This document shows positions 7,548 through 56,084 of a DNA stretch of 64,000 nt, one piece after another; within the stretch, counting starts at the first letter, position 1, and every line of letters starts with the position of its first letter. Source of the DNA: a virus; IMG/VR virus record IMGVR_UViG_3300042549_009448, positions 116,031 through 180,030 of that record; one strand, given 5' to 3'. The notes beneath the pieces are model-generated. The model worked only from the letters and a program-made list of their open reading frames with translations. It was not told where the DNA came from and did not search any database. The position numbers and the translations under genes are program-made.

Positions 7548-8281
7548 TATCCGTTTACTATTTTAATTGCTTCTTCTTTATCGACTGGATCATAATCAAC
7601 TTCTCCAGTTGCTTCATTTATGCTAGTAACTACGCCATATCCACCAGTTCTTTCATTTCTAATAATGTCTCCAACTGAGAGAGGTTGCTCTTGACCTCCA
7701 CTTGGACCTAAACCTCCTTCTTTTCCACCGCTTCCACCGTTACCCGGCTTTTTCTTTGGCTTCGGAGCAGATTCAACTTCTACGTATATTTGTTCTGCAT
7801 TCAGGCCCTTATACTTATCGTCTATTAGACCTCGAAGGTCATTTGCAATTTCTGCTTTTGAGATAATACCGTCATCCGCTAACATTAAGTTAATCTCATA
7901 GTCGCCTGCGATATTCCATTTTTCAGGATCTCTGCCCTCCATTCTAGCAAAGTGTAGAAGTGCACAGTGCAAAACTTCATGGCACAAGATAAAGACTATT
8001 TGTTTTTCAGTCAGTGGAGCAAAGAAATCAGGATTAATGAATAGGTGGACGCCGTCAACCGCAGCAGTTTGAATTTGCGGGTGTCTTGTATAAACGATTT
8101 TGAGTTTATAGGCAAGCTCTGCAAAAAAGCGGTATCTACCAGTTAAGACTTGAAATGCATAGGATACTTTAATTCTAGTTATCTTAGAATTTGGATCATC
8201 CATTTGATTCTCTAAAACTAGATTGGATTTAGAGAATTGGCTGTATTGGTTAAAACTATTCCAGTCTAGGAGTCTTTTCAT
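7547..8281 (-). CDS. Zinc metallopeptidase of the MoxR/VWA module
   Basis: 244 residues. HEVLHCALLH at about residue 108 is the zincin HExxH motif of the DUF2201-type putative metallopeptidase domain; WNIAGDYEINLML follows, supplying a candidate third ligand. A Gly/Lys-rich linker and a small beta domain (VGDIIRNERTGGYGVVTS) end the protein. The N-terminus (MKRLLDWNSFNQ) is weakly like the capsid-targeting leader. Both ends overlap neighbours as TAATG, so the three proteins should be made in fixed ratio. Confidence 0.85.
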   Translation of the reverse strand: MKRLLDWNSFNQYSQFSKSNLVLENQMDDPNSKITRIKVSYAFQVLTGRYRFFAELAYKLKIVYTRHPQIQTAAVDGVHLFINPDFFAPLTEKQIVFILCHEVLHCALLHFARMEGRDPEKWNIAGDYEINLMLADDGIISKAEIANDLRGLIDDKYKGLNAEQIYVEVESAPKPKKKPGNGGSGGKEGGLGPSGGQEQPLSVGDIIRNERTGGYGVVTSINEATGEVDYDPVDKEEAIKIVNG

Positions 8282-9846
8282 TATGGATTAAGATTTGCGG
8301 CTTGAATTTCTCTAGTTGAACCAGGATATGCAGCCAAGAATTTTTTAAGTCCAGCAACAGTTGCTGGATAAGTATTTTTTGCGACATTTGGCTGGTTCTC
8401 TCTAACTGCTGATAGAATTTGAATCGCAACAGTTGGATCGCCGACTCTAATAATATACTCAAATAAGTTGTCAATTTCCTGATCAGTTAGATCTCTGTCC
8501 CGGTATTCGTATGCAATTGCTGATGCAAGGATGTATGCTGAATCGATTTCGTAATCATTACTACCTCTTGATTTAGGAGGTAACGGTGCATTCATTGGAT
8601 CAGAGTACACCAAATTCATTTTATCAAGGTCGATCTTTTGAGATAGTGCATAGTAACCCATGAACATGCTTGCAGCTTCTTTACCTACATTTGGTGCAAT
8701 TGCTTCGTTTTCAATAATTTCTGGAGTTAGTGTCATGCCAGACTCAGCAGATTCCCTCTTAAGATTTTTCAAAGCAATGGCAGCCGCTTCCCATGAACGT
8801 GGGCTTGGGAAAATAGTACCAGAGACGTCTGGATCGTATTTGTGAAAAAAGTCTTGACCTTTTGTCCAGTTCAAAAATGAAATAATACGTGGATCAAATA
8901 GGTCTTCGCCAGTTTCACTTTTTGCAGAAAGTGCATACTTACTGTAATCTTTAATGGATGGTGAATAGTTTACCTGTTGGAAACGATTACCTAGGGCAGA
9001 ACCAAATTCGGATGTATTAGTTTCATCGTCTTCCATTCGGTTAGAGGCAGCAATGATCGTCCAGTTGCTACCTAATTTCCAACCTCCATCCATTTCTCTA
9101 TCGAGTACAAGTTTCAAACAAATATTACGGATTGCCTCTTTAGCTCTTGATAATTCGTCTAAGAAGATAATTCCGCCCTTTCCATCTGGGCCGTTTGCTT
9201 TATCATTACCTTCTTGACCTTCAGACTCGTGATAAACCGGTAACCAGCCCTGTGGAACACGACCTGCTCTACGTGAATATCGGCCCTGCTGTGAAGTTGA
9301 ACCTTCTACTTCAGGTAAGAAGAAATCTTCTGGTGCATAGGTTGTCAACTGTACATCAATCATACGGCCTCCGTATTGTTTTTGAACCGCTTTAACGACT
9401 GATGTTTTACCAATACCTGGTGCTCCCCATATCATTATCGGACGTTCGTCCTTGTTTTTAAGGACTCTGTTGATAATTCTTAATAGTCTCTCAGCTCCCA
9501 CATTTATAACACCAGCCTTCACATTTGGAAAGTCCAATGGAACCACAGCTTCATCAACATCTGCAGAATCAGATTCCCCATCTCTTGTGATTTGTGGCAT
9601 TTCCGTAATATCAAGTGCCTGTGCATCGGCTGCCGATGGAATGATAGTTACGCCATACGGAATAGTACCATCTGCACCGTTTTCTGATCGCTTGCCGCTC
9701 ATTTGGGCTTTTAAAGCACTTAAGAAACCGCCGGCTTTTCCAAGAAAGCCTTTAACTGCACCAATTGCCTTTTTACCAAGTTCGCCTAAGCCTTCATTGT
9801 TTAAATTTTCAGTAATGAATTCTGAGTAAGATTTAATGATTCTCAT
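8281..9846 (-). CDS. MoxR-type AAA+ ATPase with capsid-targeting-like leader
   Basis: 521 residues. It begins MRIIKSYSEFITEN, a T4-type capsid-targeting leader with a possible cut after FITE, then an Ala/Gly/Lys-rich stretch. AAA+ core: Walker A GAPGIGKTS near residue 143, Walker B IIFLDE near 225 and sensor-1 IIAASNR. MoxR ATPases act with VWA proteins as chaperones or metal insertases. The leader suggests that this ATPase, at least, is carried in the virion. An ATAAATAA box lies 23 bases upstream. Confidence 0.88.
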   Translation of the reverse strand: MRIIKSYSEFITENLNNEGLGELGKKAIGAVKGFLGKAGGFLSALKAQMSGKRSENGADGTIPYGVTIIPSAADAQALDITEMPQITRDGESDSADVDEAVVPLDFPNVKAGVINVGAERLLRIINRVLKNKDERPIMIWGAPGIGKTSVVKAVQKQYGGRMIDVQLTTYAPEDFFLPEVEGSTSQQGRYSRRAGRVPQGWLPVYHESEGQEGNDKANGPDGKGGIIFLDELSRAKEAIRNICLKLVLDREMDGGWKLGSNWTIIAASNRMEDDETNTSEFGSALGNRFQQVNYSPSIKDYSKYALSAKSETGEDLFDPRIISFLNWTKGQDFFHKYDPDVSGTIFPSPRSWEAAAIALKNLKRESAESGMTLTPEIIENEAIAPNVGKEAASMFMGYYALSQKIDLDKMNLVYSDPMNAPLPPKSRGSNDYEIDSAYILASAIAYEYRDRDLTDQEIDNLFEYIIRVGDPTVAIQILSAVRENQPNVAKNTYPATVAGLKKFLAAYPGSTREIQAANLNP

Positions 9847-36959: not shown

Positions 36960-37523
36960 TTATTTCTTAATATCTGCAAGTTTTGCGTTAGCTGCATCGA
37001 TCTTAGCGATCTTAGAGTCAAAGAAGCTCTTGAATTTAGCAACCATTGATTTAATCTTGTCAGAAATCTTAGCGATTACTGCCCTAGCCTTATCGGTTAG
37101 CTTACCTTCGTCCAATTTATTGATTTCAAAAGAGTGCTTAACTGAGGTGATTGCTGTATTCTGTCTAACGCATTCGTTAATGATTGCTTGAGCAGCTTCA
37201 TCAACCATTGTTAGAGCCTGTTCTACCGCTTTTCCGTAAGAAACAGAAGATCCTTCTCCACCGTATCTTGTAATTTTCATTACGTACTTTTCAGTAGTTG
37301 CCAATTTATCGTTAAGAACTTTCATTGCATCAAAGATTGGTTTAACTGATGCGTCGAACTCCTTTAATTCTCCGTCGATTGCTTTAGTTTCAGCAGTCAA
37401 CTCTTTCAATCTTTCTTTGATTTCGTGAATTCTTTCTAACTTAGCAATGATTGCCTTGTCTTTTAATTGTGCTTCATTAACTTTTGATTCGTTAACAAAT
37501 TGTGTGAACTTTAACAGTTTCAT
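36960..37523 (-). CDS. Predicted virion-internal coiled-coil protein
   Basis: 187 residues. Leader MKLLKFTQFVNES (possible cut after FVNE), then heptad-rich segments (IAKLERIHEIKERLKELTAE) and a C-terminal helical Ala/Lys-rich tail. An ATAAATAA box lies 22 bases upstream. Resembles head-core or scaffold-type internal proteins. Confidence 0.85.
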   Translation of the reverse strand: MKLLKFTQFVNESKVNEAQLKDKAIIAKLERIHEIKERLKELTAETKAIDGELKEFDASVKPIFDAMKVLNDKLATTEKYVMKITRYGGEGSSVSYGKAVEQALTMVDEAAQAIINECVRQNTAITSVKHSFEINKLDEGKLTDKARAVIAKISDKIKSMVAKFKSFFDSKIAKIDAANAKLADIKK

Positions 37524-39411: not shown

Positions 39412-40389
39412 TTATCGATCAAAAGAAACTAAATTTCTACTAATTTCTTTGATTATATTTGAATAGTCGAACGTAACATCATTGTCTGTTATTTTAAGAT
39501 TAGCGACATCATGCGAACGAATGTTAAATTCAATCATTTTATTGTTTCCAAGAGTCAATTCATAAATTGACTCGTTAATTTCAAATTTAAAATTTTGAGT
39601 TTCGATAAACTCATAAAAATAAAATCTTAAATTTGGAGATATGATATGTTCTTCCAAACCATCACTATTTATCAAAGTGCTAAGTTCATCAGTCTTACCA
39701 ATGAACATCTTATATTTTGTATTTTGGGAATAGTTAAAAATGTCACACTCTTCCCAATAATAAATTTTGTCCTTTATATAGTGATCTGATACTGAAAGAT
39801 TAAATTTATTCTTCCACTTAATAACTTGATCTTCAGCAATACCATTTTTGCTCAAATATTCGTCTAACTCTATCTCTTTTTCAATATTAATCATTGATTC
39901 TCTATCAAACACCATAAAATGTAGAGTAGCTTCCCATATTAGGCTATCATCGCCTAAGCTAACTCTCGAATGAACTAAGTTCATTCGATTTTCGGTTATT
40001 TCTTTGATGACCTCGTCATCGATATCTAGATCATAAATTAGATGATAAAATAAATCATAGTCATAAGTTAAAGCAATTTGACTCATTTTTTTTACTTGAT
40101 ACAAAGCGGCCCAACCGTAATCGCCAACATTACGATGCATTCTTACAAAACCGTCAACTGACCAATCAGCCTTCCAAAATGTAAAAGCTCGGACCGGCCA
40201 ATTCAATATTGGGTTTTCTTTAGTGTAGAAAAAATAGTCACAAAGTTTTATAATATCATAGGGAACTTCTATGGGACTAATTGCGAATACATCAATTCCC
40301 AATCTCTTAATCGTTAAGATATTTTCCTTTAAAACATTTTGCTTTTCAATAGTATCACAAAAGGTGCTAATTAGTGCAATTTTTTTCAT
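39412..40389 (-). CDS. Glycosyltransferase-like protein
   Basis: 325 residues from [21 protein letters not shown] frame extending to 40491 runs through the tRNA-Ser gene, so I reject it. [18 protein letters not shown] near residue 135 looks like a GT-A DxD region. The protein is a distant paralogue of 46124-47137 (both have CDYxxxxK.NPxxxWPxR or similar and YD.D). Likely modifies phage or host surface glycans; the sugar is unknown. Confidence 0.75.
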
Positions 40390-40412
40390 AGTTCCATTTT
40401 GCTTAATTTTTG

Positions 40413-40497
40413 CGGAGAGGGAGGGATTCGAACCCCCGTTAGTGTTACCTAAAACGGTTTTCAAGACCGCCGCGTTCAACCGCTCTGCCACCTCTCC
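40413..40497 (-). tRNA. tRNA-Ser (TGA)
   Basis: Type II tRNA: acceptor GGAGAGG/CCTCTCC, anticodon loop CTTGAAA (TGA), a long variable arm and T-arm GGGGG TTCGAAT CCCTC. 85 bases, as expected for serine. Confidence 0.92.
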
Positions 40498-46123: not shown

Positions 46124-47137
46124 TTAAATGTCAAAAGTAAAATTCGATATCCAATATTCGTCGTTAAAACTTTCGTCTAGAGTTTCTTCCATCGATTCGT
46201 TATTGATTTTTAGAATTTTAAATTGAGTAGGATTCTTATCAATTAAATCAATTTCATAAAGTATATAATAATCCAATTCAATTAAGTTTAAGTGTAGATC
46301 AGTAAGCTCTAAAATCTCAGTTCCAATATCTACAGTTAACCGGCGAATTTCCTGTTGTACACAATAAATAAGTATTTTCTTGAGTGAAGGATTTTCACTA
46401 ACTGATCCTAAATGAAGAAACTCGAAATACTTTAGGACAGGCTCGTGCTTGCTAGGAATCCTACCGTGTAATCTATCTTGTTGTTCAGAAAATAATTCAG
46501 GCAAATTAGCTCCATCTATCTGATGAAATTTTAAATTTGAAATTTGTAGACAGTTGTGAAAATATGCTTCAGCGAGTCTTTCAGTATTTGTTGTGAACTC
46601 TATGTAGTGTTTTAAATTAACTATTGAACTTAAAGCTTTGAACGACTTTTGAACATTGAAGTAAAGTTGAGTACACTGAACTCCGATATTGCCGTCGTAT
46701 CTTCCGAATTGGTGAGTGACTACATCATTATTAACACTTAACTCATGTATCATTTGATTGTACTCAGTAAAATTAGTTAAGTCAACATCATAATTAAAGA
46801 AATACGCGAACTCGTAGTTTAAATTATAGGCAAAACCTAATCCATTTATTATTTGTTCTATTGCTGCGAAACCGTATTCTTCTTTGACAAATACCATTTT
46901 CTTATTTCCCCAGTCTTTCCAAACGTTGAATGTTCTTTCGGGTATTACTGGATTGGATTTGTCAAAAATATAGTAATCGCATACGCTGTGAACCTTATCT
47001 GGAACTGGATATTTTGCATACAGCAAAACGTCTAATCCATTTTGCTTGCAGTTTAAAATGCACGATTCAACCAGTTTTAATTTAACATCAGTGTTTGCAT
47101 ACGAACCGATTATCGCAAGTTCTCTTTTTAATTGCAT
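46124..47137 (-). CDS. Glycosyltransferase-like protein
   Basis: 337 residues. FAYFFNYDVDLTNFTEYNQM near residue 115 is a GT-A-like DxD region; N-terminal ELAIIGSYANTDVKLKLVES matches a Rossmann-like start. Distant paralogue of 39412-40389 (same DYYIFDKSNPVIPERTFNVW-type segment). Substrate unknown. Confidence 0.75.
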   Translation of the reverse strand: MQLKRELAIIGSYANTDVKLKLVESCILNCKQNGLDVLLYAKYPVPDKVHSVCDYYIFDKSNPVIPERTFNVWKDWGNKKMVFVKEEYGFAAIEQIINGLGFAYNLNYEFAYFFNYDVDLTNFTEYNQMIHELSVNNDVVTHQFGRYDGNIGVQCTQLYFNVQKSFKALSSIVNLKHYIEFTTNTERLAEAYFHNCLQISNLKFHQIDGANLPELFSEQQDRLHGRIPSKHEPVLKYFEFLHLGSVSENPSLKKILIYCVQQEIRRLTVDIGTEILELTDLHLNLIELDYYILYEIDLIDKNPTQFKILKINNESMEETLDESFNDEYWISNFTFDI

Positions 47138-47201: not shown

Positions 47202-48443
47202 TTACTTTAATGCTGTTTTAAGGTTCTTCTTTAGTTCAACTAAATCTTCTCTGTACATATCAATCGGCTCCTTCTTTTTAATCTCAGCCAATTCGACCTT
47301 CTTTTCAGCAACCTCGTTTAAGAACTGCTCGTAAGTCTCTTTAGTTAATGAATGAATTGGCATGTTCAATAGGTAATTGTACGATCCGTTAACCTCATCA
47401 AAATCAGCAGTCTGTAAATAGAGAACGATTTCTTTACGTGGAACGTTATTGATCTTTAGTTTACCATCGATGATTAGCTTTACGAACTTCGCTCGGTTTG
47501 ATAAGTACACCAATTCTTCGCCGTACTTCTTTATTAGGAATGCCTTACGCTTTGAATAGAATCCCAATCTGAAATTAACGAAGTATTCCACCACTTGCGG
47601 AACCTCTTCGAATATGATTAGCTTACCATTTTCGTTCAGGCAAGTCAAGTTCTCAGTTTCAGTCTCAATCATCTTTAGAGTCTGATCTAATTTACCCTTT
47701 GCAATTAAGTCAGAGAGAGTTGCTCTTGCGAATTTAATGGTGTAATTGATTCCATCGGTTGAGTTATCCTCGTAAGAGTAAATGATACCTCTGTCCTGCA
47801 AGGAGTTAAGATGAGTCTCGTACTTTTGGAATGTCATTGACGGCGGAAGCTCGGTGATCTTGACTGTCGTCGTATTTTGGATCTCATAGACTCCACGCAT
47901 TACGTACTGATTAGTGCCAGTAACGTTCTCAACCGGGCCAGAGTAGTCCTTCCACCAAGGTAAAAGCTTACCGATCTTCTTTCCATCAAGCACCTTTAGG
48001 CAAGAATCGACAAGATCAAGAGGGTTTCTGTTTAAGATATTAGTAGCGAATCCTACTGCAATTCCCGAACTACCGTTTAGTAAAACGGTCGGAATGATCG
48101 GTAAAAAGAATTTAGGTTCAATTGTGTTACCTTCCTCGATCTGATTCTCTAGTAATTCAAAATCCTTGTAGAGCAATCTAAAATTACCGGTTAGCTTAGT
48201 TGAAATGTAACGAGCTGCACCGGCTTCAGGCGATCTTAAGGATCCGAACTGGCCGATCTCATCAAGTAAAGGTAGGGAATTCTTGAATGATTGCGCCATA
48301 CCAATGATTGCACCACTAAGGCTTGAATTATGGGTTACAATATTTCCTCTACTTATTAAAAAGGTATGAGTATCATCTACGGTAATATCATAAAACTTTT
48401 TAGGTTCTAGTAATTTTACTAAATTAATTCTTTTTATTTTCAT
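47202..48443 (-). CDS. Topoisomerase II medium subunit, C-terminal part fused to intein-C
   Basis: 413 residues. Residues 1-39 are a C-terminal intein half (KFYDITVDDTHTFLISRGN, IVTHN then Ser as +1). After splicing, SSLSGAIIGMAQSF continues the HHGD motif of the other half. The active-site Tyr is in AARYIST. Together the two exteins make about 453 residues, close to T4 gp52 (442). A split, trans-splicing intein (see mobile element). Confidence 0.9.
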   Translation of the reverse strand: MKIKRINLVKLLEPKKFYDITVDDTHTFLISRGNIVTHNSSLSGAIIGMAQSFKNSLPLLDEIGQFGSLRSPEAGAARYISTKLTGNFRLLYKDFELLENQIEEGNTIEPKFFLPIIPTVLLNGSSGIAVGFATNILNRNPLDLVDSCLKVLDGKKIGKLLPWWKDYSGPVENVTGTNQYVMRGVYEIQNTTTVKITELPPSMTFQKYETHLNSLQDRGIIYSYEDNSTDGINYTIKFARATLSDLIAKGKLDQTLKMIETETENLTCLNENGKLIIFEEVPQVVEYFVNFRLGFYSKRKAFLIKKYGEELVYLSNRAKFVKLIIDGKLKINNVPRKEIVLYLQTADFDEVNGSYNYLLNMPIHSLTKETYEQFLNEVAEKKVELAEIKKKEPIDMYREDLVELKKNLKTALK

Positions 48444-49724
48444 TTATCTTATTTGTTAATGTATTTAATAATGAATTTGATTGAGTTAATAAATCGCAAT
48501 CTGTCCAAATAATAATAGTCTCATATCCATAAGATTCTATTAGTTTCATCTTTTTTTCAAAATATCCAAAATTTTCAGACGCAGTTTGTTTAGTTATTGG
48601 ATGGATCCAGTTTGAATCTTTGGATTTAGCATGCCATGTACAATTATTATACTCAACTACTATTTTTAATTTAGGTATGACTAAATCATAAAAATATGAC
48701 TTATGTGTAATTGAATCCCTTATGCAAAATTCACGGAGACTATCAATTCCACAAAAGAATTTTACTTTATTTTTTTGTAATAATTCAATAGTTGGTCCAA
48801 AAAATACAATGCTTTCTTTTGAGGTTTGAGATAATTGACTTAGTCTAGGGTCATATCCTAATTTATCAATAAAAGCATGATGAGTTTTCCACCAAGATCT
48901 TTTTATTAAATCTGGGTCATGTAATAAAGACATAGTTAGAGTATTCTTCTTTTTTGTCTTAGTTTTTTCTAATTTAGAAATATTATCTACGCCATATCGA
49001 TCAATCATTGTATTCTTTATTTTGGTCTTAACTGAATCTACTGAAAATTGGTTTATTACACCATGTTCTTCAAATAATCTATTTTTAATCAAGTTAACGG
49101 TCTTTGACTCTTTTTTAAAATTATGACTAACTCCTTCTGATTTAAGATAGGATTCAATTGTTAATTGCTTAGCGCATTCTTTAGAACAGGTTTGATTTTG
49201 ATGATGCTTAAATTCAATGTTACAAATAGGACATATTTTATAATGTCTACAATCTTTACATAAACTTGTTAATTTAGTAAATGATTCAATAATTCTCCTT
49301 TCTGAAAAGTTTGATATTGAATATGAGTCAGAACATCGAGTACACGCATACATCCCTTTTCTGATTTTTGAGATTTCTTCCATATTCGTTGTGTAGTTTT
49401 AAGTTATTTATACTCACAATATCATCATGGTGTTAAAATGTCATCGTTGTCTTCTAAATGCTGAGCTTCGATCCAACCTCTAGTAGTTAAAAATGGATGA
49501 TTGCCTGTACATTTAATAATTTCTCCATTTTCTAACTCTATCTCAAACTCAACATCAGTTACGTTTCCTATCCTAGGCGAGTGAGCTATCGACTTTGTAA
49601 ATTCCTTTTCAGTTTCATCAAATGTGATGACTTCAAATCTTTCATTTGGAAATTTTTCAAACCATTCGCCTATTGTAATATAAGTACCATCACTTAATAA
49701 AATTTCGGTATTAGGATCTAAACA
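48327..49724 (-). mobile_element. Split intein with internal endonuclease gene (fractured topoisomerase)
   Basis: IntN (49428-49724, about 99 residues starting at Cys80, CLDPNTEILLSDG, with block B GNHPFLTTRGW) lies at the 3' end of one gene. IntC (48327-48443, 39 residues) starts the other. Between them is the free-standing homing-endonuclease gene 48424-49383. This matches the fractured-gene arrangement of split inteins described from metagenomic phages. Confidence 0.88.
48424..49383 (-). CDS. Vsr-like homing endonuclease between split-intein halves
   Basis: 319 residues. N-terminal zinc fingers (CTRCSD, CKDCRHYKICPIC, CSKECAK), a central helical DNA-binding region and a C-terminal EDxHD-type nuclease: SKESIVFFGP, YFYDLVIPKLKIVVEYN, TWHAKSKDSNWIHPITK. 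These features match the homing family found in fractured genes. It overlaps the IntC gene by 20 bases. Confidence 0.85.
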   Translation of the reverse strand: MEEISKIRKGMYACTRCSDSYSISNFSERRIIESFTKLTSLCKDCRHYKICPICNIEFKHHQNQTCSKECAKQLTIESYLKSEGVSHNFKKESKTVNLIKNRLFEEHGVINQFSVDSVKTKIKNTMIDRYGVDNISKLEKTKTKKKNTLTMSLLHDPDLIKRSWWKTHHAFIDKLGYDPRLSQLSQTSKESIVFFGPTIELLQKNKVKFFCGIDSLREFCIRDSITHKSYFYDLVIPKLKIVVEYNNCTWHAKSKDSNWIHPITKQTASENFGYFEKKMKLIESYGYETIIIWTDCDLLTQSNSLLNTLTNKINENKKN

Positions 49725-49961
49725 ATCGCCATGATGGTAGTGGGCATCAGCTGCAATCTTACCGCCTAATTGAAATATCTTTAATGGCTTTTCATTGCCT
49801 GATCTCCAAACTTTATCTGAGATATAAATGATTTTACGCTGAGTAGGTTTGAAACCATCTATTACAGAAGGAATTGCCCGGTTTTCTAACGTGTACATTC
49901 CGTACATCGCATAGTCCTGATCTAAGTATTCAGTTACTGTTTTATTCTTTACGTGTGTCAT
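49425..49961 (-). CDS. Topoisomerase II medium subunit, N-terminal part fused to intein-N
   Basis: 178 residues. Residues 1-79 are the gp52/GyrA-type N-terminus (ENRAIPSVIDGFKPTQRKI and AADAHYHHGD); intein-N begins at Cys80. The extein break falls exactly in the HHGD/S motif next to the active-site region. Overlaps the SulP gene by 20 bases. Confidence 0.9.
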   Translation of the reverse strand: MTHVKNKTVTEYLDQDYAMYGMYTLENRAIPSVIDGFKPTQRKIIYISDKVWRSGNEKPLKIFQLGGKIAADAHYHHGDCLDPNTEILLSDGTYITIGEWFEKFPNERFEVITFDETEKEFTKSIAHSPRIGNVTDVEFEIELENGEIIKCTGNHPFLTTRGWIEAQHLEDNDDILTP

Positions 49962-51084
49962 GCTTTAATATTAATTTACTAAAATAGAATATAATTGACC
50001 CGATGATTACGCCGATTGCTAAGTTATGAGTAGCTAACGAAATAATAACTGTCAATATAATACTCAATAAGTTAAGTTTATTTCCTGATTTTATGCTTTG
50101 CCAATCCCCAGTTTGGTAAACAACAACCATCATTACACCAATTAGGCCAGCGAGCGGTAACCGTTCAATCCATTCACCAAACACTAGAATAATGACAGCT
50201 AATCCTAGAGCCGCAACTAGGCTAGACAAACGGTGTTTTGCACCTGCTCCAATATTCAAGTTGGTTTGTCCGACTAGTACGCAGCCTCCCATTGTTCCAA
50301 ATAGCCCGCTTACGATATTACCTATTCCTTGAGCTAATGTTTCTTTGCCCTTGTCACCGGGCTCGTTTAACTTATTAGAAACACTATCGACCGTTAGTAA
50401 TGATTCGGTTAATCCTGAAATTGCCATGCCGAAAGAGTATGGAATAACTGCAAGTATTAAAGCAGTAGAGATCGTTGGCACCTTAAATTCTGGTAAGCTT
50501 GCTGTAACTGACGATAGATCGCCGACTGTCGCAAAACCTAATGGAATACCAATGAGGGTACCGACTGCAATTGCGGAAAGAGCTGGTGGAAACTTAAATC
50601 GTTTTGCGGAGTACATCATTGTTGCCGCAGACAGAGCAACTACACAAATAAGCCAAATCGTTTGTGAACTAGTAGGCGAACCTACTTGCAGATACTTTAA
50701 TTGACTATGTAATAGCATTAAGGCCAAGGCAATTAAAAACCCTGAGATTGCAGCATTCGGTATCTTTGCAAATACTCGCCATGCGCCAGAAGAAAAAATT
50801 ATCAATTGAATTATCCCAGCTAAGATTACTCCCAGAAATAGAGAGTCTATTCCAACTGTAGATACTAAACCTGCCATGATTACGGCGGTTGCACCAGTTG
50901 CACCGGAAATAATTCCAGGTCTTCCACCGAAAATGGAAGTAGATAGTGCCATGAATACGGCAGCCCATAATCCAATTTGAGGAGCTGCTCCAACCAATAG
51001 AGCAAATGATATTGCTTCTGGTACAAGCGCGATTGAGATAGTTAATCCTGAAAGTACTTCCGTTTTTATTTGATTAGCGGTCAT
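49942..51084 (-). CDS. SulP-family anion transporter
   Basis: 380 residues, 10-11 membrane segments. GLTISIALVPEAISFALLVG (TM1, SulP signature), FGGRPGIISGATGATAV (TM3 region) and AISGLTESLLTVDSVSNKL. The C-terminal STAS domain present in most SulP proteins is missing. Transport of sulfate, bicarbonate or another anion is possible. A phage-encoded transporter of this size is unusual. Confidence 0.88.
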   Translation of the reverse strand: MTANQIKTEVLSGLTISIALVPEAISFALLVGAAPQIGLWAAVFMALSTSIFGGRPGIISGATGATAVIMAGLVSTVGIDSLFLGVILAGIIQLIIFSSGAWRVFAKIPNAAISGFLIALALMLLHSQLKYLQVGSPTSSQTIWLICVVALSAATMMYSAKRFKFPPALSAIAVGTLIGIPLGFATVGDLSSVTASLPEFKVPTISTALILAVIPYSFGMAISGLTESLLTVDSVSNKLNEPGDKGKETLAQGIGNIVSGLFGTMGGCVLVGQTNLNIGAGAKHRLSSLVAALGLAVIILVFGEWIERLPLAGLIGVMMVVVYQTGDWQSIKSGNKLNLLSIILTVIISLATHNLAIGVIIGSIIFYFSKLILKHDTRKE

Positions 51085-52876: not shown

Positions 52877-54712
52877 TTAAATTGAAAGCTTGAGCAGCTT
52901 TTCCTTACGAGGTTCAGAGTCTGATCCGAACCAGTCGCTTAGGCTATCTTTGTATTGCTTGTCGTTCTGTAATTTAACCAAGACCGGATTATGAATAATA
53001 TCTCGATACTCAACGTCTTCCAAGGCAGCAAGACCTTTCTTGTATTCAACATCCCAACCCCTTGCACCAGTTTTCTTTTCCCATTCAGAGTACTCGTCGT
53101 TTGAATAGAACGGTTTTACCTCCTTGCCCTTCTTTGCAACGACCAATGGAGTCATTACCTTGAAGACCCGGTTCTGTTCAAAAAGCTCTGGCCAATACTT
53201 ATTAAAGAAGTTGATTAGCAGACCGGCAATCGAGTCTCCGTCTGGATCAGCATCAGTGTAGATGTACACTTTTCCATATCTCAGATCACCCGGTTCCTCT
53301 CCCAATTTGATTCCTAATGATGCCATAAGCTGGACGACCTCATCATTCTGGATGACCCCAGAGTTTGTCATCTCGCTAACGTTTAGGAACTTACCCTTTA
53401 GCGGAAAGGCTCCGAACGTTTGCGGATCCCTGAACTTACGTACAGCAGAAAGCGCTGACATTCCTTCAAATATTCCAAGCACGCATTTATTACGGTCCTT
53501 ACCCTTTGCATCAATTAACTTAAGCACTTTAGTGCTTGCTAACGATTTATTAAGCTTGCGTAGCTCAGCTCGTTCTTCTGCACTTTTTTTCTGTTCAATC
53601 CAATCCAATAGAGACTGAATTACTTCTGATCCAAAAACAGCCTTTGCGAATTTCTCAGTAACTTCATGCTTTGTACCAAAATCCTTTGCCTCAGTGATTA
53701 ACTTCTCCTTTGTTTGAGATGAGAACGCTGGATTGATTACGGTACAGTTTATGAAAAGAAATACATGGTTCTTTATTTCAGAAGGTTTAACATCGACCTT
53801 GTGTTTTTTCTTAATCATGGCCCTGAGATACTCAATTACCTGATTTAGGACATAGTTCTCATGTGTTCCACCGTCTTTTGTTTGAATTGAGTTAACGAAC
53901 GATATTGATTGGTATCCATCCTTTGAAACTCCCATCGCAAACTCCCAGTCCTTTGACTTTTCCCAAATGGAATCCTTTACGTAGAGGTCAACGTACTCTT
54001 TAAATGTTTTAAACTTGTATTTCTCTCCACAGAATTCTAATTTAAGTCCAGGATTTGCAGCAGCGATATCGATTACTCGCTTACGCATCATCTTCCAATG
54101 AGCCGAGTCAATCTCTTCCATTTCGAAACGAGCAAGATCCGGTACGTAGGTTATTTCAGTAAAGCCTTGCGAAGTTTTACTGGTTTTTGGAACAGTTCTC
54201 TTCGACATGTTATCTGTGAATGTCTGTAAGAATCGGTTCTTTCCGTCAGCTGTATCAATCACGAAACGCTTTGAGAAAATATTAACCAATGAAGCTCCCA
54301 CTCCATTCGTTCCAGCAACGGTTCTGCCCTCATCATCATTGAAGTTTGAGCCTGCTCTTAAGTTAGAGAAGATTAATTCAGGAATCCAAACTTTGTGCTG
54401 CGGATGTTGAACTACCGGTATTCCACCATTGTCCCATACCGTGATGGTGTCTGCACTCACCGATACTTTAATTGTGTTAATTTTACCGGATCTTTTGTGC
54501 TCGTCAACTGAATTCGAAATGATTTCGTCAAACAGTTTTAGGAAACCTGGATTATAGGTTAACTCCTCTTTTGAATAGAGGCCGTCTCCGAGAATCCATT
54601 CATTTGCGGTGTGGGGCTTTGTGGAGCCAATGTACATTCCAGGTCTTTTAAGAACGTGTTCAATCTCGTCTAGTAGCTGGTATTTCTTTCCTATTTCTTT
54701 AGTAGATGCCAT
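52877..54712 (-). CDS. Type II topoisomerase large subunit (gp39-like)
   Basis: 611 residues. GHKL ATPase: DEIISNSVDEHK, WDNGGIPV and GTNGVGASLVN. Toprim: GIFEGMSALSA and YTDADPDGDSI. Resembles T4 gp39 plus gp60 in one protein. Its partner is the split-intein medium subunit at 47202-49961. Works in phage DNA replication by removing supercoils. Confidence 0.93.
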   Translation of the reverse strand: MASTKEIGKKYQLLDEIEHVLKRPGMYIGSTKPHTANEWILGDGLYSKEELTYNPGFLKLFDEIISNSVDEHKRSGKINTIKVSVSADTITVWDNGGIPVVQHPQHKVWIPELIFSNLRAGSNFNDDEGRTVAGTNGVGASLVNIFSKRFVIDTADGKNRFLQTFTDNMSKRTVPKTSKTSQGFTEITYVPDLARFEMEEIDSAHWKMMRKRVIDIAAANPGLKLEFCGEKYKFKTFKEYVDLYVKDSIWEKSKDWEFAMGVSKDGYQSISFVNSIQTKDGGTHENYVLNQVIEYLRAMIKKKHKVDVKPSEIKNHVFLFINCTVINPAFSSQTKEKLITEAKDFGTKHEVTEKFAKAVFGSEVIQSLLDWIEQKKSAEERAELRKLNKSLASTKVLKLIDAKGKDRNKCVLGIFEGMSALSAVRKFRDPQTFGAFPLKGKFLNVSEMTNSGVIQNDEVVQLMASLGIKLGEEPGDLRYGKVYIYTDADPDGDSIAGLLINFFNKYWPELFEQNRVFKVMTPLVVAKKGKEVKPFYSNDEYSEWEKKTGARGWDVEYKKGLAALEDVEYRDIIHNPVLVKLQNDKQYKDSLSDWFGSDSEPRKEKLLKLSI

Positions 54713-54926: not shown

Positions 54927-56084
54927 TTAAGGTATCTTAACTCCAGGAATTCCCATTAACTGGTTGCTTAATGCTCTAAGCATTGGGATATGATTTGAGA
55001 ACTTAACGGTCTCGAACCAGAATGGAGTTTTGGTTTTTGAATTTAGAACAACTTGGTAATCGCTAAGGCCAGCGTATTTCTGTAGAGTTTGAGGATCGAA
55101 CATTACCGGTTTTGCAATCAGATTTCCATTCTCCTGACGAATCATCATCGGTGAAGCTAGTCCAACCATTTGCACCAAACGACCAGCTCTTTCAACTTCT
55201 CTAGCCCAATCAATATAGAATACGAAAAGTCTGCGACCTCCCTCAACATTGGGACCCATGACAACAACCGTATTACCCTTACCGAAAGAAACGGATTCGT
55301 CTACTACATCAGTTTCAGTAGAGAACTTAGAGTCAACTGCATTTGAGGGTTCAGAATAAATATGTGAATAGGCTTGAGACTTTAGGTCAATTAACTTTCC
55401 GATCCAGCCTTCATTACGTAATCTCTTAAATACTAGATTCTCAACCGAGAACTCTCCGCCCTTATTCGCAAGCTGTTCGTCTCTTGATCTTGAGATCTTT
55501 TTCTTTAGAACGGAGGCACGTTCCATAATATCACGAGCCTCTTCCGGGCCAGCCTCTTGAATCTCGTCAATCATTTGCTTGATTGCATAGATGTAATGGT
55601 CAGATTTTAGCTGAACGTCTTTTGGATCAACACTAGGCGGATTATACGCAGGTTTTCTAAGCCATTCTCCCTTTAGTAGAGAATAGAGACCTGATGCCAA
55701 ATGTAATTGATTTACGTCCTGTGCGTACAGTTCAACATCGTATCCTTCAATATTTACTGGATGGCGTTGATTCCACACGGTCTTTAAACCTTCCATTGCA
55801 ATCTTCACGAGCTCAACGTCCTTGTTTATCTTGGAAAGATCCATGATAATATGCACGTCAAAGTCAGAGTACTTTGTCCAGTTATAATTAGCTAGGGATC
55901 CAGTAAGTTGAATATCTTCAATTGGAGCACTAACCTTTAGGTCCTCATAGAAGTCATGAGCAATTTGCAGAAGCTTGGTTCTGAGCTCAGAGTTAAGGTC
56001 TTCTCCATCCCAGACCATTGGATTCAATTGATCTTGGTAGAATTGGCCCTCATTTATGAATTCGGTGAATTTAAACAGTTTCAT
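54927..56084 (-). CDS. Nucleotidyltransferase with capsid-targeting-like leader
   Basis: 385 residues. Leader MKLFKFTEFINEGQ (possible cut after FINE). Residues 50-110 contain TGSLANYNWTKYSDFDVHII, the GS...DxD signature of the polymerase-beta-like nucleotidyltransferase fold, and a third Asp is available in YDVELY. The C-terminal 150 residues are unassigned. Possible virion-delivered enzyme that modifies a host macromolecule. An ATAAATAA box lies only 6 bases before the ATG. Confidence 0.85.
   Translation of the reverse strand: MKLFKFTEFINEGQFYQDQLNPMVWDGEDLNSELRTKLLQIAHDFYEDLKVSAPIEDIQLTGSLANYNWTKYSDFDVHIIMDLSKINKDVELVKIAMEGLKTVWNQRHPVNIEGYDVELYAQDVNQLHLASGLYSLLKGEWLRKPAYNPPSVDPKDVQLKSDHYIYAIKQMIDEIQEAGPEEARDIMERASVLKKKISRSRDEQLANKGGEFSVENLVFKRLRNEGWIGKLIDLKSQAYSHIYSEPSNAVDSKFSTETDVVDESVSFGKGNTVVVMGPNVEGGRRLFVFYIDWAREVERAGRLVQMVGLASPMMIRQENGNLIAKPVMFDPQTLQKYAGLSDYQVVLNSKTKTPFWFETVKFSNHIPMLRALSNQLMGIPGVKIP

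What the first reader, a model, noticed from the sequence alone, without database searches (positions are those of the whole stretch)
47202..49961. Fractured topoisomerase gene: split intein with a homing endonuclease between the halves
A gp52-like subunit is broken at the HHGD/S motif. The first gene ends in an intein-N (Cys80 onwards) and the second begins with a 39-residue intein-C ending VTHN and Ser, with a Vsr-like endonuclease gene in between. Joined exteins give about 453 residues, matching T4 gp52 (442). The arrangement matches the fractured genes described in metagenomic phages, here in an essential topoisomerase.
Basis: partly seen in the sequence, partly recalled or inferred. Interest (0 to 1): 0.85.

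Follow-up and report, generated by a model that had tools for sequence, protein, structure and literature searches.

The report
Split-intein topoisomerase gene in a phage
A large phage has its DNA topoisomerase gene cut in two by a mobile element, a split intein plus a DNA-cutting homing enzyme; the two half-proteins almost certainly stitch themselves back together, and DNA scars around the insert show that it jumped in recently and brought along the one amino acid the stitching needs.

Summary
On the minus strand, a gp52/GyrA-type topoisomerase gene is broken after YHHGD into gene N (79-aa extein + 99-aa intein-N), a 319-aa endonuclease gene, and gene C (39-aa intein-C + 374-aa extein). All splicing residues are present, the joined exteins give 453 aa, and no second copy lies in the 180-kb record. 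I found the same fractured arrangement at exactly this site in 12 other IMG/VR contigs and in LR756500.1; dozens of relatives have intact genes. Two fractured loci have lost a working endonuclease yet keep a complete split intein, and inteins are under purifying selection (dN/dS 0.09-0.24), so trans-splicing is very likely. The element moves horizontally: extein and intein trees conflict, and the window carries a conversion tract (about 390 bp left, under 26 bp right) that replaced the recipient's Gly codon by the Ser needed at +1. The endonuclease looks Vsr/I-Bth0305I-like, at moderate confidence. This is a new member of the known 'fractured gene' kind (Dassa 2009). New to me: the host gene and site (GyrA Asp82/Ser83), the imported +1 nucleophile, a homing-site-like sequence before the endonuclease, and a relative with both topoisomerase subunits fractured.

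The parts
49725..49961 (-). Extein-N of topoisomerase IIA A-subunit (79 codons, ends YHHGD)
   Evidence: PF00521/phrog_551 matches; intact relatives continue directly from here
49425..49724 (-). Intein-N, 99 aa (Cys1, TGNH block B) and stop codon
   Evidence: TIGR01445 E=8e-14; alignment of 11 loci
49421..49435 (-). Homing-site-like sequence TAACACCATGATGAT (13/15 to YHHGD codons), overlapping the gene N stop
   Evidence: 0 of 1000 shuffles reach it; also seen in L017, L018, L107; post-hoc observation
49405..49412 (-). TATAAATA, T4-late-promoter-like, just before the endonuclease ATG
   Evidence: the motif is not enriched in the window, so suggestive only
48424..49383 (-). Free-standing homing endonuclease, 319 aa: N-terminal Cys (zinc) motifs, DUF7487 middle, Vsr-like C-terminal domain
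48327..48443 (-). Intein-C, 39 aa, ends VTHN; start overlaps the endonuclease end by 20 nt
   Evidence: TIGR01443 E=1.2e-7
47202..48326 (-). Extein-C (374 aa and stop), starts with +1 Ser (48324-48326); catalytic-type Tyr is residue 79 of gene C
   Evidence: PF00521 E=3e-65; Ser40 aligns with E. coli GyrA Ser83, Tyr79 with Tyr122 by the same offset
49725..50110 (.). Left part of the conversion tract: L009-like sequence within an L004-like backbone
   Evidence: from -430 to -90, 79 of 89 informative sites match L009; from -1000 to -480, 168 of 186 match L004
48300..48326 (.). Right part of the conversion tract, brings Ser+1 (TCA) and AGT at +4
   Evidence: 9 of 12 positions differ from L004 against 18 of 360 beyond, P=4e-10
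52877..54712 (-). Intact partner subunit (gp39/GyrB-type); not interrupted here
   Evidence: phrog_543 E=4e-193

Best explanation
A phage gp52-type topoisomerase II subunit is made as two precursors from a fractured gene. Their intein halves associate and trans-splice (Cys1, TxxH, His-Asn, Ser+1), giving an uninterrupted 453-aa subunit and releasing the intein. The endonuclease gene between them makes the element mobile: it is inferred to cut intact topoisomerase genes at the YHHGD codons, and repair copies in the whole cassette with short flanks. Shown here: anatomy, conserved chemistry, purifying selection, exact empty sites, horizontal spread, a conversion tract. Inferred: that splicing occurs, and that the endonuclease cuts this site.
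For: Domain matches and site. The junction is exact: relatives with 88-96% identical exteins read straight through. Same layout in L015-L018, L107-L112, L114/L097, L115. Catalytic residues kept in all 11 distinct junctions. Inteins dN/dS 0.09-0.24. In L016 the endonuclease is broken and in L115 only a remnant remains, yet both keep complete split inteins. +1 is Ser in 11 of 11 fractured loci, but G40/A15/S8/T3 in 66 intact ones, and Gly in 13 of 14 of the closest. Conversion tract. Intein tree contradicts extein tree: L111 and L097 inteins pair (99/99), exteins do not. For L017/L018, dS is 0.09 in the intein and 0.13 in the endonuclease against 0.30 in the exteins.
Against: No splicing or cleavage was measured. 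The endonuclease's Vsr assignment is weak by sequence (E 0.004-0.03) and its model is only moderately confident (pLDDT 77). The window's endonuclease is fast-evolving (31-40% identity to its relatives; dN/dS 0.49 against L017), so its activity here is less certain than the intein's.
Confidence: 0.9

Rival explanations
1. Genes in pieces: the halves work as separate subunits held together without splicing, as with T4 gp39/gp60 or Aeh1 NrdA split by endonuclease insertion.
For: Such cases are documented in T4-like phages, including a mobA insertion in the T4 topoisomerase (PMC2988022).
Against: All intein chemistry residues are kept in every locus, including those with a dead endonuclease; inteins under purifying selection; the break lies inside the most conserved active-site segment.
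Confidence: 0.05
2. The split intein is ancestral and inherited vertically; intact relatives have lost it precisely.
For: Several fractured loci fall near each other in one part of the extein tree.
Against: Precise loss would leave Ser at +1, but the closest intact relatives have Gly; conversion tract; discordant trees; intein dS below extein dS.
Confidence: 0.04
3. The locus is a dead or dying copy in this phage, with the topoisomerase supplied by the host or another copy.
For: T4 topoisomerase is dispensable under some conditions (own knowledge); the record is incomplete, so another copy cannot be excluded.
Against: All three reading frames are intact; exteins are 88-96% identical to intact genes with the active-site Tyr kept.
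Confidence: 0.03

Closest known systems
Fractured genes with split inteins (Dassa et al. 2009; gp41-1, gp41-8, NrdJ-1, IMPDH-1, NrdA-2)
   Same: Conserved DNA enzyme split by an intein, intein-N about 100 aa and intein-C about 40 aa, +1 Ser, free-standing endonuclease between the halves, Vsr-like in about half the cases (own knowledge of that abstract). The joined intein's best match among solved structures is NrdJ-1 (E=1e-6).
   Different: Host protein is a type II topoisomerase A subunit, at the GyrA Asp82/Ser83 position. I could not read the 2009 paper to check whether topoisomerase is among its eight enzyme types.
Mycobacterial GyrA intein
   Same: Intein near the active site of the same protein family.
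   Different: Contiguous, not split; sits about 40 residues further on, next to the active-site Tyr (own knowledge).
I-Bth0305I / EDxHD homing endonucleases and Vsr nucleases
   Same: C-terminal domain aligns with Vsr, with invariant Asp233 and His251 on Asp and His of Vsr, and Foldseek places it with Vsr and I-Bth0305I (prob 0.91-0.97).
   Different: E-values are modest; no sequence match to I-Bth0305I; N-terminal zinc-type region.
I-TevI autorepression (operator resembling the homing site, over a late promoter)
   Same: Homing-site-like sequence and TATAAATA in front of the endonuclease gene (PMC2988022).
   Different: Other endonuclease family; no binding data; not seen in L097, L111, L115.

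Membership tests
Class 1 split intein | N-terminal Cys, block B TxxH, C-terminal His-Asn, +1 Cys/Ser/Thr | tested here: met
   All present in the window; Cys1, His-Asn and +1 Ser in 11 of 11 loci
Class 1 split intein | Two fragments on separate polypeptides that splice in trans | tested here: inconclusive
   Separate ORFs are shown; splicing was not measured
Fractured gene arrangement | Enzyme gene broken by a split intein, with an endonuclease ORF between the halves | tested here: met
Fractured gene arrangement | Intact homologues without the insert, exact at the junction | tested here: met
   66 distinct intact junctions
Vsr-like / EDxHD homing endonuclease | Vsr-type catalytic fold and residues | tested here: inconclusive
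   Top PDB sequence hits are all Vsr but E=0.004-0.03; fold hits Vsr, I-Bth0305I, AbaSI
Vsr-like / EDxHD homing endonuclease | Cuts the empty site | not testable with these tools
   Needs purified enzyme; the conversion tract is indirect support
Type IIA topoisomerase A subunit (gp52/GyrA) | PF00521 across both halves, active-site Arg-Tyr | tested here: met
   AARY at residues 76-79 of gene C

The most novel reading that the evidence does not exclude
A homing element that makes its own host site usable: recipients carry Gly at +1, where the intein could not splice, and homing overwrites it with Ser through a short, asymmetric conversion tract. In addition the endonuclease would limit itself by binding a homing-site copy placed in front of its own gene, as I-TevI does, but in a Vsr-type enzyme inside a split intein.
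Probability: 0.25. Interest if true: 0.65.

Novelty: new member of a known kind. Interest (0 to 1): 0.52.

Why it matters
It gives a densely sampled natural series (empty site, fresh insertion with conversion scar, old insertions, insertions whose endonuclease has died) for one split-intein site, so the life cycle of fractured genes can be followed step by step. It also adds about ten diverse natural split inteins of the gp41-1/NrdJ-1 size class as candidates for protein-ligation tools.

Tried and rejected
Single-sequence scan with the endonuclease found no relatives in viral contigs; the alignment scan did. A deeper endonuclease alignment did not sharpen the Vsr match (E 0.024 against 0.0036). 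TATAAATA is not enriched in the window (8 against 6.7 expected), so a late promoter is only suggestive. The homing-site-like motif is absent from L097, L111 and L115, so it is not universal. L095/L096 carry a remote intein in a helicase-like gene, unrelated to this site. Assembly error rejected: independent contigs agree.

Full report
What is there. On the minus strand of the window three ORFs follow each other: gene N (49961-49425, 178 aa), an endonuclease (49383-48424, 319 aa) and gene C (48443-47202, 413 aa). Gene N residues 1-79 and gene C residues 40-413 are the two parts of a type IIA topoisomerase A subunit: both match PF00521 and phrog_551, at adjoining positions of the profile. Between them lie a 99-aa intein-N (TIGR01445, E=8e-14) and a 39-aa intein-C (TIGR01443, E=1e-7). 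The partner subunit (gp39/GyrB type, 52877-54712) is intact nearby. The window is part of a 180,030-bp IMG/VR record in which no second A-subunit gene was found and this is the only intein; the record is probably a fragment, since the longest contigs of close relatives are 250-270 kb.

Where the break is. In alignments to full-length E. coli GyrA (chain 6rks_A), gene N ends at Asp82 and gene C's +1 Ser falls on Ser83. By the same offset, gene C Tyr79 (AARY) falls on the catalytic Tyr122. Ser83 is the classic quinolone-resistance position (own knowledge). Neither half holds a complete active site.

A family of fractured topoisomerase genes. Scans found the same arrangement at the same codon in 12 IMG/VR contigs (L015, L016, L017, L018, L107, L108, L109, L110, L111, L112, L114, L115) and in the 462-kb phage LR756500.1 (L097; its endonuclease is identical to that of L114). 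Dozens of relatives read straight through the site (66 distinct intact junctions).

Evidence that the intein works. Cys1, His-Asn and +1 Ser are kept in all 11 distinct junctions. dN/dS in the intein is 0.09-0.24 in the pairs measured. In L016 the endonuclease is reduced to a frameshifted fragment and in L115 to a stub of about 44 codons, yet both still have complete intein halves. A broken endonuclease can be tolerated; a broken intein apparently cannot. The closest solved intein is NrdJ-1, itself a split intein from a fractured gene (own knowledge).

Evidence that it moved in recently. In the closest intact relatives (extein-C at least 80% identical) the residue after HHGD is Gly in 13 of 14, followed by SLNG; the window has SSLSG, as in L017/L018. 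Going from Gly codons GGN to TCA takes several base changes. In the first 12 bases right of the junction the window differs from its nearest relative L004 at 9 positions, against 18 in the next 360 (P=4e-10); from +26 on it is L004-like again. On the left, the backbone is L004-like up to about -390, then L009-like from -383 to -94 (79 of 89 informative sites between -430 and -90), then mixed to the junction. This is what double-strand-break repair from an intein-bearing donor would leave: a patch of about 390 bp on one side and under 26 bp on the other. The immediate donor was not found. The extein tree puts the window inside a clade of intact genes (99/99) and scatters the other fractured genes; the intein tree pairs L111 with L097 (99/99) although their exteins are apart. 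For L017/L018 the intein and endonuclease have lower dS than the exteins.

The endonuclease. It has conserved Cys pairs at the N-terminus, a DUF7487 match in the middle and a C-terminal domain whose best PDB sequence hits are all Vsr nucleases (E=0.0036 with 5 sequences, 0.024 with 9). Two AlphaFold models (pLDDT 64 and 77) give Foldseek hits to AbaSI/PvuRts1I, I-Bth0305I and Vsr (probabilities mostly 0.85-1.0, E above 0.001). I take the Vsr-like assignment as likely, not proven. Its end overlaps the gene C start by 20 nt, and 4-nt ATGA overlaps occur in several relatives, which suggests coupled translation. Hits in Tenacibaculum phages, Chryseobacterium phage topoisomerases and one Bacteroidetes MAG hint at a Bacteroidota host.

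A possible control element. Right after intein-N there is a sequence like the homing site itself: 13/15 to the YHHGD codons in the window, 14/15 in L017 and L018, 13/15 in L107, with 0 of 1000 shuffles as good (1 of 1000 for L108), followed in the window by TATAAATA. T4 intron endonucleases repress themselves through homing-site-like operators over such promoters (PMC2988022). I noticed this after the fact, the loci are related, and L097, L111 and L115 lack it, so it is a hypothesis.

Novelty. Fractured genes with split inteins and Vsr-like endonucleases have been known since Dassa et al. 2009 (cited in the papers; text not held). I found no held paper reporting one in a type II topoisomerase, but that search is limited. 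I file this as a new member of a known kind, with an unusually clear homing footprint.

Noticed in passing
L097:800-7233 (LR756500.1): Both topoisomerase II subunits are fractured side by side: the B subunit is split at GIFEGL/SALSAV by another split intein with an HNH-like endonuclease between the halves, and the A subunit is split as in the window.
   Followed up: partly
L189:3077-5538: An intact topoisomerase A gene has, divergently just upstream, a stand-alone endonuclease with the same N-terminal DNA-binding region but an HNH-like C-terminus: catalytic domain apparently swapped.
   Followed up: partly
window 49942-51084 (-): SulP-type sulfate permease gene (PF00916) in a phage, present in L004 and L009 but missing in other close relatives such as L002 and L013.
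   Followed up: partly
window, e.g. 36960-37523, 54927-56084, 8281-9846 (-): Many ORFs share an N-terminus like MKxLKFxEFINE, resembling T4 capsid-targeting peptides (recalled, not tested).
   Followed up: no
window 39412-40491 and 46124-47137 (-): Two ORFs of similar size that look related to each other, without a confident family; the start of the first overlaps a tRNA-Ser (40412-40497).
   Followed up: no
L098:4749-5588 (Tenacibaculum phage PTm5): Unannotated stretch encoding a relative of the window's endonuclease, next to the baseplate subunit gene.
   Followed up: no
L095:5377-7950: A helicase-like gene carrying a contiguous intein after DE, remote to the one here.
   Followed up: no
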